DNA from: a virus
Virus record (IMG/VR): IMGVR_UViG_3300037246_002669
Span: 30,913-94,912 of that record
Strand: one strand, 5' to 3'
DNA length: 64,000 nt
The notes below the pieces were generated by a model that was given only the letters and a program-made list of their open reading frames with translations, searched no databases and was not told the DNA's origin. The translations under genes and the position numbers were made by a program. This document shows, in pieces, positions 41,438 through 57,623 of this stretch (positions are counted from its first letter, which is position 1; the number at the start of each line of letters is the position of its first letter).

Positions 41438-41683
41438 TCAAATGCGACATTTTACGGAACTTCGCCACTCGTTTTTGGGATATGGACACCCCCATCCCAC
41501 ACTCAGGGCCTCTTTGTGTGCTTCTGCAATGTCACAGACATGTTGAGCCCCATCCCACTGCAAGTTATCACAGCCCCGATACTCCCACGAACTTTGGTGT
41601 CGTTGGGGCGATAATCCGCAGGGGGATAAATGACAGCAAAAGCCGCATCGCTTGCATGGAGGGAAAGCCTTACTCTTCATCAT
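41438..41683 (-). CDS. Cys-rich YkgJ-like protein
   Basis: 81 residues with PPCKRCGFCCHLSPCGL, the CxxCGxCC signature of YkgJ-type metal-binding (zinc/iron) proteins. More cysteines follow (GCDNLQ, HVCDIAEAH, GCPYPKN). The start after GGAGTGATTG overlaps the regulator gene by 14 bases. Confidence 0.7.
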   Translation of the reverse strand: MMKSKAFPPCKRCGFCCHLSPCGLSPQRHQSSWEYRGCDNLQWDGAQHVCDIAEAHKEALSVGWGCPYPKNEWRSSVKCRI

Positions 41684-42224
41684 CAATCACTCCAGCTACA
41701 ATTACCCTCGAAATTGCGAGATATTCACGCTGCACAGTAAAAGAGCAACTTTCCAAGCAAAGCATATCAGCCAGTAAGGGGATACTTGACAGCATCAGCC
41801 AATTTTCCCGAAACTTTTCAAGAGCACCTTTCTCTATCTGCTGCACCCGGGAGACTGTTAAGTCGAGTTCAAGTGCAATCTCTGTCAATGACATTCTATA
41901 AAGAGAAGATCGCATGGCCACATCACTTTCAGCATCCCTGAAGTTGGTTTGTCTTTGTTTCTGAGCAATACTGTTGCGGGATTTGGTGCGCATCTTTTGG
42001 CACGCATCGCACCTGGATTTGGTCCACGCCTTCGGTTTCACAGAAACACTCTCCCCACAATCTTCACAAGTCATCATATAATTTCCGATTGCCTGCCAGT
42101 GTTCCCCACAAAGGACAGGGACTTCACTCCGTTCATTTTTAACCATGACACATTCGCATCGATACTGCACTCCGGTTAGTTTGTCGGCAATTTTGGTCGA
42201 ATCAATAAAATCATAGTCTGCCAC
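41670..42224 (-). CDS. Regulator with zinc ribbon and sigma-70 region 4-like HTH
   Basis: 184 residues, GTG start after GGGAGG. It begins MADYDFID. Zinc-type cysteines follow (CECVMV, CGEH, CEDCGE, CDACQK). Residues about 112-142 (MSLTEIALELDLTVSRVQQIEKGALEKFRENW) are a clear sigma region 4-type helix-turn-helix. Regions 2 and 3 are missing, so it is likely a -35-binding activator or anti-host transcription factor. It could act on the repeated TTGACA promoters (inference). Confidence 0.75.
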   Translation of the reverse strand: MADYDFIDSTKIADKLTGVQYRCECVMVKNERSEVPVLCGEHWQAIGNYMMTCEDCGESVSVKPKAWTKSRCDACQKMRTKSRNSIAQKQRQTNFRDAESDVAMRSSLYRMSLTEIALELDLTVSRVQQIEKGALEKFRENWLMLSSIPLLADMLCLESCSFTVQREYLAISRVIVAGVIDDEE

Positions 42225-42247: not shown

Positions 42248-42820
42248 TTACCGTTTACCCTGCAATAACAACTCTATCCGAAAAAATGGATCATTCTTTT
42301 TCAGCCATTGAAAAGCAGATGAAGTTGTGTTGCAATTTGGAAAATCGCATTTCTTTTCTGCCTGCCACCGGGCGATAACAGCATCAGTTAAACTGGAAAA
42401 TAACCCAAGATGTATTTGACTCCTATCCACCGTGATTTGTGATTGCCATTTTTGACGAGTCCTGCGCCAACAGACTCCAGTTACCCCGGATGAATTATTG
42501 GAGTGTACGCCCCTGTTCCTATTTTGACACTGGTAGGTCGCTTCTCGCAAATTGGAGATCCAGTTGTGATGTCGAATTCTGTCTTTATGATCAATTGTAT
42601 TTTCGGGGAAACATCCATAATACATCAACCATGCGATGCGGTGCGCGAGATACGTCTTATTATTTATGCGAAGGTAGATATATCCATTATAAAGAGAACC
42701 CGCTTCATCCCCGGCGCGGATCGGTCCCCAGCTTGTTCTGTGGGTAAAAATCCCAGTTCGGGGATCATAATTCAATTTCCGAGGGGCTTCTTGATCGATA
42801 AAATCGTAGTCATCTGCCAC
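42248..42820 (-). CDS. HNH-AP2 homing endonuclease, paralogue 1, with captured leader
   Basis: 190 residues. HRIAWLMYYG, IDHKDRIRHHNWISNLREAT (HNH core) and an AP2-like DNA-binding segment (SGVTGVCWRRTRQKWQSQI). Unlike its two paralogues it begins MADDYDFIDQ, matching the start of the regulator gene downstream, including the ribosome binding site and the GTG start. So it has taken its neighbour's 5' end. Free-standing homing endonucleases nick intron-like or neighbouring loci and spread themselves. Confidence 0.88.
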   Translation of the reverse strand: MADDYDFIDQEAPRKLNYDPRTGIFTHRTSWGPIRAGDEAGSLYNGYIYLRINNKTYLAHRIAWLMYYGCFPENTIDHKDRIRHHNWISNLREATYQCQNRNRGVHSNNSSGVTGVCWRRTRQKWQSQITVDRSQIHLGLFSSLTDAVIARWQAEKKCDFPNCNTTSSAFQWLKKNDPFFRIELLLQGKR

Positions 42821-42856
42821 TGTCCATCCTCCCCAATGTTAGGATTTTATAAAAGC

Positions 42857-42888
42857 AAAAAAGGAGGGATTTTATCCCCCCCTCCCTC
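42857..42888 (-). terminator. Terminator after the GHKL gene
   Basis: GGGAGGG...CCCTCC stem with AT-rich loop, followed by TTTTTT on the minus strand. Confidence 0.65.
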
Positions 42889-42897
42889 GTATGGAAT

Positions 42898-44421
42898 TTA
42901 CTTGAGTTTTTGGATTGCCTTGTAAGCGTAGTGACTCGGCATGGTTTTAAATCGAAGGCGGGACATCTCGCCGACGAACTCTTCGTCATGGTAGCGATAC
43001 TTCATGTGCGCCAGTTCGTGGAGAGCCATTTCTTTCAGGTATTCGACTAACATCCATCGTTTTTTCATCGGAGTCTTACTTCCTCCCAGAATTTTATCGG
43101 GGTTAACCGACACTACCACATTACCGGTGGAGTCCATACGGAAGGATGCTGCCCTGTCGTCGTCAAAGTCAAATCCGGCAGTGAAGGAAATGTAATTTTC
43201 GTCGTCCAGCAAAATCTGCTTTACAATTTCCGTCCACATCTCAGCCAGGACATTACCATACTTGGAGGAGAGGAACTTTTGTACTCTGTCCTCATCACTC
43301 ACTTCATGACTCACGAAGAAATCGGGTTTGTACCCAACGAAGTTCAGTTTAGCAGTGTCCACTTCAGTATCACTGAGGCATCCCCCATTGTCGAAAATTT
43401 CCTTGGCTTCAATCATGATCCGTTCGTAAGCCACGGACTCCGAAACTCCTTCCATCAGGGAAGCTAAGCCCGTCACCATGGAAGCCAGCCCTTTTTTAGT
43501 TTCAGGCAGGATGTCAGAGCGCAGCTGGGAAGTTACCATCCCCGCGCGGAAAGAGGACTGGGTTGCATTGACGTGAACTTTGCCGGTTCCATTCAGTATT
43601 CCTGAGATCATGACTTTAGGGGGATTAAGAATTGCCTTGCGATCGGCGGATATTTTGCGGGTTAACTTTGCGACTTCCTCTGCATAACGTTCCTTTAATG
43701 AGTCGCGGTTGGAGTTCAGGCACTCCACTGAGTTTTTGGAGAGTTCCAAGGTCAACCTTGCGCCGATGTCTCCAATGTGTTCGGAAAACATCCAGACTCC
43801 ATTAATCCTGAAATGCATGTGGGGATCATTCCCGACTTCCTCGTTAATATGAAGTTTTGCCCAATCAAACTCATGGCAGCCGCCATTGCCTTTGGTTATT
43901 TTTGTCTTAATGATCTCACCGTCCACTGAGATTTTGCAAGGCACTTCCATTTTGGCAGCAACGAGCGCGAAGCAGGCGCGAAGTTGGTCCATGTCCTCGG
44001 CTTTGGGAATCCAGATGGAAGCTCGGGTTCCCTGCACAAACTCGTTAGATTCGATGGTATAACCGGCACCCTTACCAGTGACCTTATACCGATCAGTCAG
44101 GATTTGATACCGGGTCCATGAAAAGTAGAGGAGATCTTTGGCTTTCCCAAAACCACCAACTGCATCATCGCCGTCCTTATAGGAACCGCCCAGGGTGAGG
44201 AGTTGGGCCAAAACCGGGCGTTTCATTCCAGAACCATCATCAATAATGTCAATCCGGCGATCACTCGGGACAAACTTCACTTCGATTTCAGTGGCACCCG
44301 CATCAATTGAGTTTTGGTAGAACTCACGAGGAAGGGCAGTTCGATAGTTTCGATAATCGGCTTTTGCCATTGTAAGAAAATATCCGTTCGGTACTGTCAA
44401 GGTGTTTTCATGTTTTGCCAT
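42898..44421 (-). CDS. GHKL ATPase fused to HExxH metallopeptidase-like domain
   Basis: 507 residues. The GHKL (Bergerat) motifs are complete: EFYQNSIDAG (N box), IIDDGSGM (DxGxG), and GGFGKAK (GxxGxG-like). They resemble HSP90/MutL ATP clamps. A middle domain of about 200 residues is unassigned. Near the C-terminus MALHELAHMKYRYHDEEF carries HELAH (about 468-472), a zincin-type zinc site. It has its own promoter cassette and terminator. The combination suggests ATP-gated proteolysis, possibly against a host defence; this is inference. Confidence 0.75.
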   Translation of the reverse strand: MAKHENTLTVPNGYFLTMAKADYRNYRTALPREFYQNSIDAGATEIEVKFVPSDRRIDIIDDGSGMKRPVLAQLLTLGGSYKDGDDAVGGFGKAKDLLYFSWTRYQILTDRYKVTGKGAGYTIESNEFVQGTRASIWIPKAEDMDQLRACFALVAAKMEVPCKISVDGEIIKTKITKGNGGCHEFDWAKLHINEEVGNDPHMHFRINGVWMFSEHIGDIGARLTLELSKNSVECLNSNRDSLKERYAEEVAKLTRKISADRKAILNPPKVMISGILNGTGKVHVNATQSSFRAGMVTSQLRSDILPETKKGLASMVTGLASLMEGVSESVAYERIMIEAKEIFDNGGCLSDTEVDTAKLNFVGYKPDFFVSHEVSDEDRVQKFLSSKYGNVLAEMWTEIVKQILLDDENYISFTAGFDFDDDRAASFRMDSTGNVVVSVNPDKILGGSKTPMKKRWMLVEYLKEMALHELAHMKYRYHDEEFVGEMSRLRFKTMPSHYAYKAIQKLK

Positions 44422-44471: not shown

Positions 44472-44500
44472 AATCTAACACCGGTTAAAATCATTGTCAA
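44472..44500 (-). promoter_or_regulatory. Promoter cassette P1 (GHKL gene)
   Basis: TTGACA, 17 bases, TAGATT on the minus strand. The -10 lies within a near-palindrome with arms close to GTGTTAGAT and ATTTAACAC. No adjacent TTGCAA palindrome here. Confidence 0.8.
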
Positions 44501-46209: not shown

Positions 46210-46238
46210 AATCTAACACCGGTTAAAATCATTGTCAA
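46210..46238 (-). promoter_or_regulatory. Promoter cassette P2
   Basis: TTGACA-17-TAGATT. The distal operator arm is altered compared with P3. A TTGCAA palindrome lies 16 bases upstream of the -35. Confidence 0.8.
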
Positions 46239-47595: not shown

Positions 47596-47624
47596 AATCT
47601 AACACCGGTAAAAATCATTGTCAA
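47596..47624 (-). promoter_or_regulatory. Promoter cassette P3 with full operator
   Basis: TTGACA-17-TAGATT. The operator palindrome at 47585-47605 has 9-bp arms GTGTTAGAT and ATTTAACAC (one mismatch) around TGT, covering the -10. Confidence 0.85.
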
Positions 47625-50139: not shown

Positions 50140-50168
50140 AATCTAACATCGGTTAAAACCATTGTCAA
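50140..50168 (-). promoter_or_regulatory. Promoter cassette P4
   Basis: TTGACA (overlapping a TGGTTT spacer start), 17 bases, TAGATT; operator arms nearly intact. Confidence 0.82.
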
Positions 50169-51668: not shown

Positions 51669-51697
51669 AATCTAACACCGGTTAAAATCATTGTCAA
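51669..51697 (-). promoter_or_regulatory. Promoter cassette P5
   Basis: TTGACA-17-TAGATT. The operator's distal arm is partly lost, and the TTGCAA palindrome is absent directly upstream. Confidence 0.8.
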
Positions 51698-54054: not shown

Positions 54055-54083
54055 AATCTAACACCGGTTAAAATCATTGTCAA
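54055..54083 (-). promoter_or_regulatory. Promoter cassette P6 with full operator
   Basis: TTGACA-17-TAGATT. The -10 is inside the complete GTGTTAGAT/ATTTAACAC palindrome. Confidence 0.85.
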
Positions 54084-55760: not shown

Positions 55761-55789
55761 AATCTAACACCGGTTAAAATCATTGTCAA
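55761..55789 (-). promoter_or_regulatory. Promoter cassette P7 with full operator
   Basis: TTGACA-17-TAGATT inside the same operator as P3 and P6. Confidence 0.85.
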
Positions 55790-56496: not shown

Positions 56497-57579
56497 CTAC
56501 AAGTGCCGCCTGTCTAACCGCAGCATTCTTTTTGCGATATGCCGTGCGGACGCTGCTTTCAACCGCAGCATCATTCGTTTAAGTTTGACCTGACTCTTCT
56601 TTCCGATGTAAACGCCCATGTGTCCAGCATTGAGAGCGTGTTCGACTACATATTCTGACGCCACTTTATACATAATGGCCCTTGCTGACTCCTTGACGGT
56701 GATGTCGTCAGTCTTTCCCCAGGTGACACCCACGGGAATTGTGATCTTCGAAGGATCGACCAACCTACCGTGTATTTCCAACTTTCCGTTGATCATTTTA
56801 TTGTCACGGAAACCGTCACGGTTGACATCTACGACCCAGCCGCCTTCGGTATCCTGAGGACGGTAAAACCACTTCCTGAATATCGCAGTCTCTTCCAGTG
56901 CCTGACTTCTGCCGTGGACTACATTGTTGACAATCTTGAGATAATCGCCGATGAACCGTTCATAAGGGTTCATCATTACAAAATTGGTCAGGAGCACTTT
57001 TCCCGGCATGATGCCGTCATTGTCCGCAACAATCTTCTCGACCGGGCCGATGCCGAACATCTTGACAAGGTCGTAAAAATAACCTCCCCCTTTATGAAAA
57101 TCTGTCGCGGAAGCCATAAGGTGCAAGGACAAGATATCTGACTCGTCAATGGCAGTATGGCATAACAGGGAGTAACCGCCTTGGCACATGCCGATCAAAT
57201 GAACCGGGCGATCGATGAGCTTGATCACTTCGGCTACATGGTCCACAAGATCTTCAAAATAAACATTTTCATGAGTTCCCGCCGGGTGATAGCATAAGGC
57301 ATAGACGGGACTGTCGGGCATGCAGTTTTTAATGGTCTCGACTGGGGACTTCCCAGGAGACATCGAGAGAAGAACTTTTTCATCATGGCCGGATGTAGGG
57401 GGCCTGAACAAAACTGGATCTCCGGGACCGTCCTGGAACTTCCGAATGTAATACACGGAATTTGAAAAAATAATCTCGTTCTCATCGTAGCATTCTACTG
57501 GTCCTGTTGCGCATGCAGTTGCCCAGAATTTGCCAATATTCTCAAACATGTTATCCCATACGTTAAAATGCTGTTCCAC
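56497..57579 (-). CDS. PhaC-like alpha/beta hydrolase with Cys nucleophile
   Basis: 360 residues; GTG start set by GAGGAG 7 bases upstream. GMCQGG (Cys132) is the G-x-C-x-G-G lipase-like box of polyhydroxyalkanoate synthases. Asp291/292 (GKTDDIT) and His320 (AGHMGVYIG) complete the triad. RKWFYRPQDTEGGWVVDVNR then IHGRLVDPSKITIPVG also follows the PhaC order. Short compared with full PhaC (about 355-590), but near class III. It may polymerise or hydrolyse hydroxyacyl thioesters, or be a repurposed esterase. PhaZ-type depolymerase is the alternative. Confidence 0.75.
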   Translation of the reverse strand: MEQHFNVWDNMFENIGKFWATACATGPVECYDENEIIFSNSVYYIRKFQDGPGDPVLFRPPTSGHDEKVLLSMSPGKSPVETIKNCMPDSPVYALCYHPAGTHENVYFEDLVDHVAEVIKLIDRPVHLIGMCQGGYSLLCHTAIDESDILSLHLMASATDFHKGGGYFYDLVKMFGIGPVEKIVADNDGIMPGKVLLTNFVMMNPYERFIGDYLKIVNNVVHGRSQALEETAIFRKWFYRPQDTEGGWVVDVNRDGFRDNKMINGKLEIHGRLVDPSKITIPVGVTWGKTDDITVKESARAIMYKVASEYVVEHALNAGHMGVYIGKKSQVKLKRMMLRLKAASARHIAKRMLRLDRRHL

Positions 57580-57623
57580 GATGTTACTCCTCTGCCGCCG
57601 AAATATTATTGACGGCATGTTTA

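What the first reader, a model, noticed from the sequence alone, without database searches (positions are those of the whole stretch)
42898..44421. GHKL ATPase with C-terminal HELAH zinc-peptidase motif
One protein joins complete Bergerat ATP-binding motifs to a zincin-like HELAH site. I know of no phage protein family with this pairing. It stands alone between its own promoter cassette and terminator, typical of an early anti-host or anti-defence factor.
Basis: partly seen in the sequence, partly recalled or inferred. Interest (0 to 1): 0.8.

Follow-up and report, generated by a model that had tools for sequence, protein, structure and literature searches.

The report
ATP-driven zinc protease of phages
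This phage gene encodes one protein that joins an ATP-powered clamp like Hsp90 or phage RIIA to a zinc protease domain like the yeast DNA-repair protease Wss1; the pair is strictly conserved in uncultivated large phages and a few megaplasmids, is almost absent from sampled bacterial genomes, and matches no described family I could find.

Summary
Window 42898-44421 (-) encodes a 507-aa protein with a complete GHKL ATPase and a C-terminal HELAH-x5-H site. In 42 non-redundant full-length homologues (uncultivated phages, megaplasmids) H468, E469, H472 and H478 are invariant, so the zinc site is as conserved as the ATPase site. Residues 5-267 are homologous to phage RIIA (hhalign 97.9%, E 6e-13) and fold like Hsp90. 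The C-terminus is predicted as a zincin whose profile best matches Wss1/WLM and proabylysin. Seven RIIA proteins tested lack HExxH, and RIIB was not found in any member record searched. No full-length member was found among 50,697 isolated-phage records; of 385 genomes in one bacterial class only the seed has one. The gene is monocistronic: an exact copy of a seven-fold repeated sigma-70 cassette upstream, a terminator downstream. Best reading: an early ATP-switched clamp-peptidase that cleaves host or defence proteins, perhaps on DNA. Architecture is well supported; catalysis, target and timing are inferred. It is a new variant of a known kind: RIIA's 'variable C-terminus' filled by a protease.

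The parts
42898..44421 (-). CDS, 507 aa: GHKL/S5 ATPase (about residues 1-267), variable middle (about 268-385), C-terminal zincin (about 386-507)
43621..44421 (-). N-terminal ATPase plus transducer region (residues 1-267), homologous to phage RIIA; RExxQN, DDGSGM, GGFGKAK and SNRDxLK motifs
   Evidence: Pfam HATPase_c_3, hhalign with RIIA 97.9% over 5-267, Foldseek to Hsp90/TRAP1, MutL/MORC/HtpG by profile
42898..43266 (-). C-terminal Wss1/minigluzincin-like zincin domain (residues 386-507)
   Evidence: AF2 block pLDDT mostly 90-97 with zincin order of elements; profile A6 matches Wss1/WLM, proabylysin and weakly SPRTN in PDB
42988..43020 (-). Predicted zinc site HELAHMKYRYH: H468, E469, H472, H478
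   Evidence: 42/42 non-redundant members identical at the four positions
44472..44500 (-). sigma-70-type promoter cassette TTGACA-17-TAGATT, extended -10
   Evidence: exact repeat, 7 copies in the window, none in shuffles
42856..42889 (-). intrinsic terminator-like stem-loop directly after the stop codon
44430..44434 (-). ribosome-binding site GGAGG, 8 nt before the ATG
   Evidence: read from the sequence

Best explanation
A single-chain, ATP-switched zinc endopeptidase expressed from its own early-type promoter. The RIIA/Hsp90-like GHKL-S5 half binds ATP and, as in Hsp90, MutL and MORC, dimerises and closes as a clamp; the invariant Arg of the NRD motif (R239) would act like the Hsp90 SRE-motif arginine. 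The closed clamp holds a protein, or a protein-DNA complex, and the C-terminal Wss1-like zincin cleaves the trapped protein. In the phage the likely targets are host or defence proteins, perhaps on the incoming DNA; on megaplasmids it may protect the element in the same way. Shown here by computation: domain composition, catalytic-residue conservation, predicted fold, monocistronic unit, spread on mobile elements. Inferred: ATP hydrolysis, dimerisation, proteolysis, early timing. Speculative: target identity and DNA association.
For: ATPase and zinc residues conserved together. The two halves have co-diverged: pairwise N- and C-terminal distances correlate at r 0.79, 0 of 2000 permutations as high, so it is an old inherited fusion. 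N-terminus homologous to RIIA with the NRD motif aligned to the RIIA SRE motif and Hsp90-like by structure. C-terminus is a zincin by predicted fold and closest by profile to Wss1/WLM (E 0.001), proabylysin (0.003) and Wss1p (0.009), weakly SPRTN (0.12); Wss1 clears chromatin-bound proteins and is activated by stress or DNA binding (PMC4559962 abstract). Monocistronic unit. No conserved neighbour found across phage loci apart from a ligase gene in three close relatives. Found mainly on mobile elements: full-length matches in 1 of 385 and 1 of 198 sampled genomes, both the seeds. Related GHKL-HExxH modules lie inside giant proteins with radical-SAM or C5-methylase domains, as zincins do in polyvalent conflict proteins (PMC5512222).
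Against: No biochemical data. WLM and YgjP Pfam matches stay below cut-off. The GHKL half by itself cannot say whether the client is protein or DNA. pTM is only 0.61, so the relative placement of the two domains is not reliable. No RIIB partner found. No conserved genomic partner points to a target. One distant relative, L051, has lost the first zinc His (EEVAH).
Confidence: 0.55

Rival explanations
1. A DNA-protein-crosslink repair enzyme: a phage/plasmid counterpart of Wss1/SPRTN that clears proteins covalently stuck on the element's own DNA, with the MutL/MORC-like ATPase as DNA clamp.
For: Best profile matches of the zincin are Wss1/WLM and, weakly, SPRTN; best PDB sequence matches of the ATPase are the DNA-acting MutL and MORC; DNA ligase gene nearby in the window and in two relatives.
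Against: No DNA-binding domain recognised; the best structural matches are Hsp90; patchy spread does not look like housekeeping repair.
Confidence: 0.17
2. A chaperone-type ATPase whose zincin fold is a structural or client-binding zinc domain without protease activity.
For: Many GHKL proteins are chaperones or switches (general knowledge); one distant homologue, L051, has EEVAH instead of HExxH.
Against: The catalytic Glu E469, needed for catalysis but not for zinc binding, is invariant in 42 of 42.
Confidence: 0.12
3. A virion-maturation or self-processing protease.
For: Zincins in polyvalent proteins are proposed to process their own polypeptide (PMC5512222), and giant GHKL-HExxH proteins exist.
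Against: Here it is a free-standing 507-aa protein with its own early-type promoter, away from the recognised structural genes (portal, tail and head-maturation hits lie between 785 and about 33400).
Confidence: 0.1
4. The HELAH motif is a chance match in a buried helix of an ordinary RIIA-like protein.
For: HExxH alone is expected by chance in about 1-2% of proteins of this length (own estimate, no tool result).
Against: Invariance of four site residues in 42 of 42, zincin fold, profile match to Wss1, and absence of the motif from seven RIIA proteins.
Confidence: 0.01

Closest known systems
Phage RIIA (T4 rIIA and Schitoviridae/Streptomyces phage RIIA-like proteins)
   Same: Homologous N-terminal GHKL-S5 ATPase through the SRE/NRD motif, hhalign 97.9%, E 6e-13; [quoted passage not shown]
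   Different: The C-terminus is a zincin; seven RIIA tested have no HExxH; no RIIB found in 14 member records.
Wss1/WLM and minigluzincin peptidases (Wss1p, proabylysin, Mj1213, SPRTN)
   Same: HExxH-x5-H[DNS]xxF site and zincin layout; best PDB profile matches.
   Different: Below the Pfam WLM cut-off; fused to an ATPase, and lacking the regulatory tails of the eukaryotic enzymes (the latter from general knowledge).
Hsp90/HtpG/TRAP1, MutL and MORC ATPases
   Same: GHKL and S5 domains.
   Different: No Hsp90 C-terminal dimerisation domain or MutL endonuclease domain seen; a peptidase takes that place.
Polyvalent proteins with zincin MPTase domains
   Same: Zincin combined with unrelated enzymatic domains in phage and plasmid proteins (PMC5512222); giant GHKL-HExxH relatives L088, L089, L056.
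   Different: No GHKL, Hsp90 or HATPase term found in that paper's main text, MORC only in a reference; those MPTases use HExxH plus a Glu on the next helix, here a third His follows; the window protein has only two enzymatic domains.
FtsH (AAA+ ATPase fused to an M41 zincin)
   Same: Comparable principle: an ATPase module followed by a C-terminal HExxH peptidase (from general knowledge).
   Different: Unrelated ATPase class; GHKL clamps do not thread substrates; no transmembrane helix suggested (highest 19-residue hydropathy 1.08).

Membership tests
Phage RIIA | N-terminal GHKL-S5 ATPase homologous to RIIA | tested here: met
   residues 5-267
Phage RIIA | RIIA C-terminal region | tested here: not met
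   the match stops at residue 267; the RIIA-profile search finds no full-length RIIA in 13 member records, only weak N-terminal hits in two
Phage RIIA | RIIB partner gene | tested here: not met
   none in the own record or in 13 other member records; four RIIA phages ring, but they are the model's own source, and distant RIIB could be missed
Wss1/WLM/minigluzincin zincins | HExxH with a third His ligand and a zincin fold | tested here: met
   (fold is a prediction; pocket geometry not measured)
Wss1/WLM (Pfam PF08325) | score above the curated cut-off | tested here: not met
   20.2 bits against 26; 23.2 against 26 for the isolated domain
Wss1/SPRTN function | DNA-activated proteolysis | not testable with these tools
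   needs protein
Hsp90/HtpG | GHKL plus middle domain | tested here: met
   (Foldseek E about 1e-12, but whole-chain TM only about 0.3-0.4)
Hsp90/HtpG | C-terminal dimerisation domain | tested here: not met
   the C-terminus is a zincin
MutL | scores as MutL over its length | tested here: not met
   29 bits against a cut-off of 180, residues 32-69 only
Known defence systems (PADLOC) | match beyond the GHKL core | tested here: not met
   none for the window protein; for relatives only weak matches, mostly in the GHKL core and none in the zincin
Polyvalent proteins | multi-domain conflict protein with zincin MPTase | tested here: inconclusive
   the window protein has two enzymatic domains; giant relatives qualify better

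The most novel reading that the evidence does not exclude
A new class of ATP-gated protease in which a GHKL (Hsp90/RIIA-type) clamp rather than an AAA+ ring delivers substrate to a zinc peptidase, used by large phages and megaplasmids to strip or destroy host or defence proteins; it would also suggest that RIIA itself is the targeting half of a modular effector system with exchangeable C-terminal domains.
Probability: 0.35. Interest if true: 0.85.

Novelty: new variant of a known kind. Interest (0 to 1): 0.62.

Why it matters
RIIA is a classic phage gene whose biochemical function is still described as poorly understood (PMC7824862). A homologue in which the variable C-terminus is a recognisable protease offers a directly testable model for what the RIIA-type ATPase does: hold a target so that an appended effector can act. 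GHKL-driven proteolysis would be a mechanism distinct from AAA+ proteases. A member sits on the megaplasmid of the genetically tractable Methylorubrum extorquens AM1 (NC_012811.1, about 516303-518756), so it can be tested without culturing the source phage.

Tried and rejected
Known phage families: no full-length match in 50,697 isolated-phage records by tblastn with P0001, L004, L035, L025 and the module of L088; PHROGs match only the ATPase half. RIIA membership: rejected beyond the N-terminus. MutL: rejected, core motif only. Chance motif: rejected. First AF2 model with 5 sequences was too poor to use (pTM 0.40); the 36-sequence alignment fixed that. Whole-model Foldseek was dominated by the ATPase, so the zincin was tested separately as a sequence profile. 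Conserved neighbours: none of note except a ligase in three close relatives and an integrase-like gene beside five bacterial or megaplasmid members. Terminase test to see whether the megaplasmids are phage-plasmids: negative for one family (PF03237). First genome-contig scan with the close phage alignment found no relatives; an alpha-type alignment found six. A promoter pattern that I mistyped gave zero and was repeated correctly.

Full report
What is there. Window 42898-44421 (-) encodes 507 aa in a 94.9-kb virus record. Upstream is a sigma-70-type cassette at 44472-44500 that is repeated seven times on the minus strand between 44.4 and 55.8 kb, then GGAGG 8 nt before the ATG; downstream is a terminator-like hairpin at 42856-42889. 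That it is expressed early is inferred from the host-like promoter and its position away from the recognised structural genes.

ATPase half. Pfam HATPase_c_3 is above its cut-off. RExxQN, DDGxGM and GGFGxAK are present. In a 42-member non-redundant alignment, D40, G63, M66, K82, G89, F91, G92, A94, G116 and R239 are identical in all, and E33 and N37 in all 41 members with a residue there. Profile-profile comparison with seven RIIA proteins gives 97.9% probability and E 6e-13 over residues 5-267, aligning the family's SNRDxL motif with the RIIA PSRExL motif. By structure the best PDB matches are Hsp90/TRAP1; by sequence MutL, MORC and HtpG. That the aligned arginine corresponds to the catalytic Hsp90 arginine rests on general knowledge and was not tested.

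Peptidase half. H468, E469, H472 and H478 are identical in 42 of 42 non-redundant members, most of them only about 20-40% identical to the query. Seven further relatives from bacterial and viral contigs and two giant proteins carry the same kind of site. AF2 on a 36-sequence alignment (mean pLDDT 83.6, pTM 0.61) gives helix 387-406, strands 413-419, 425-429 and 435-439, HELAH helix 455-471 and helix 480-504 with H478 just before it, mostly at pLDDT 90 or better. This is the zincin order of elements. A profile of this region alone matches Wss1/WLM (5jig, E 0.001), proabylysin (0.003), Wss1p (0.009) and SPRTN (0.12) in the PDB; one unrelated oxidoreductase also appears at 0.007, and a metzincin only at E 1. 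The individual E-values are modest; the agreement of motif, fold and the run of minigluzincin hits is what carries the assignment.

Family and spread. Starting from six contigs, a profile scan reached 50 viral loci, on contigs up to 356 kb. tblastn found six megaplasmids: Pseudomonas (2), Bosea (2), Rhizobium, Methylorubrum. A second genome scan gave six bacterial contigs. Sampling cellular genomes with the profile gave full-length matches only in the seed genomes: 1 of 385 in the class of G001 and 1 of 198 in the phylum of G002; the remaining hits cover only the ATPase core, and those in the first set look like MutL by extent and ORF length. No isolated-phage record has a full-length member. 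So this is mainly a mobile-element family that has probably escaped annotation because it lives in uncultivated phages. Counts are lower bounds, since scans rely on short conserved patterns. Some distant GHKL proteins (L052-L055, L056/57, L058) also carry a C-terminal HExxH, and L051 has lost the first His.

The two halves belong together. Pairwise distances of the N- and C-terminal halves correlate at r 0.79; the largest of 2000 permutations was 0.15. The fusion is therefore old and inherited as a unit. The middle (271-384) is the least conserved part, with no column above 95%, and contains the low-confidence stretch 281-310.

Is it RIIA? It shares the RIIA ATPase half but not the C-terminus, seven RIIA proteins checked lack HExxH, and no RIIB was found in the own record or 13 other member records. 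It is better called an RIIA-like ATPase fused to a zincin. [quoted passage not shown] The fusion is not mentioned in the passages found there, nor found in the polyvalent-protein survey (PMC5512222). The literature library holds open-access papers only, so a description elsewhere cannot be excluded.

How it most likely works. GHKL-S5 proteins bind ATP, dimerise and close (established for Hsp90, MutL and MORC). With a C-terminal peptidase, closure would bring a captured client to the zinc site. Target class is inferred: host or defence proteins for an early phage gene; DNA-bound proteins are attractive because the nearest peptidases (Wss1, SPRTN) act there. A crosslink-repair role is the strongest rival. 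None of ATP hydrolysis, zinc binding, proteolysis or target has been shown.

Noticed in passing
44472-44500, 46210-46238, 47596-47624, 50140-50168, 51669-51697, 54055-54083, 55761-55789 (-): Seven near-identical sigma-70-type promoter cassettes of 29 nt, five of them exact; they could define an early regulon.
   Followed up: partly
41670-42224 and 42248-42820 (-): A sigma-70 region-4-like protein and an HNH endonuclease lie next to each other and share a near-identical N-terminal leader (MADYDFID / MADDYDFID), suggesting duplication or HNH insertion.
   Followed up: no
56497-57618 (-): A protein with a PHB-depolymerase C-terminus match (PF06850, above cut-off), unusual in a phage; may mobilise host storage polymer.
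   Followed up: no
L088:3346-12297 and L089:2893-10275: Giant proteins (2984 and 2461 aa) containing the GHKL-HExxH module; L088 also has a radical SAM domain. L056 (1761 aa) joins GHKL, HEITH and a C5 DNA methylase.
   Followed up: partly
L051:4914-6431: Distant homologue with EEVAH in place of HExxH: natural loss of the first zinc ligand.
   Followed up: no
L031:4938-6476 (also L032, L033): Family member with one in-frame stop early in the gene; related contigs L032 and L033 give the same truncated frame. May be stop-codon recoding or a frame problem.
   Followed up: no
L058:1007-2263: A short GHKL protein that resembles small phage GHKL proteins without zincin also ends in HEIVH...HDD; possible independent fusion.
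   Followed up: no
L011, L012, L014, L066, L069: A related gene lies close to the family member on the opposite strand in these bacterial and megaplasmid loci; annotated as a tyrosine-type or site-specific integrase in L012 and L014.
   Followed up: partly
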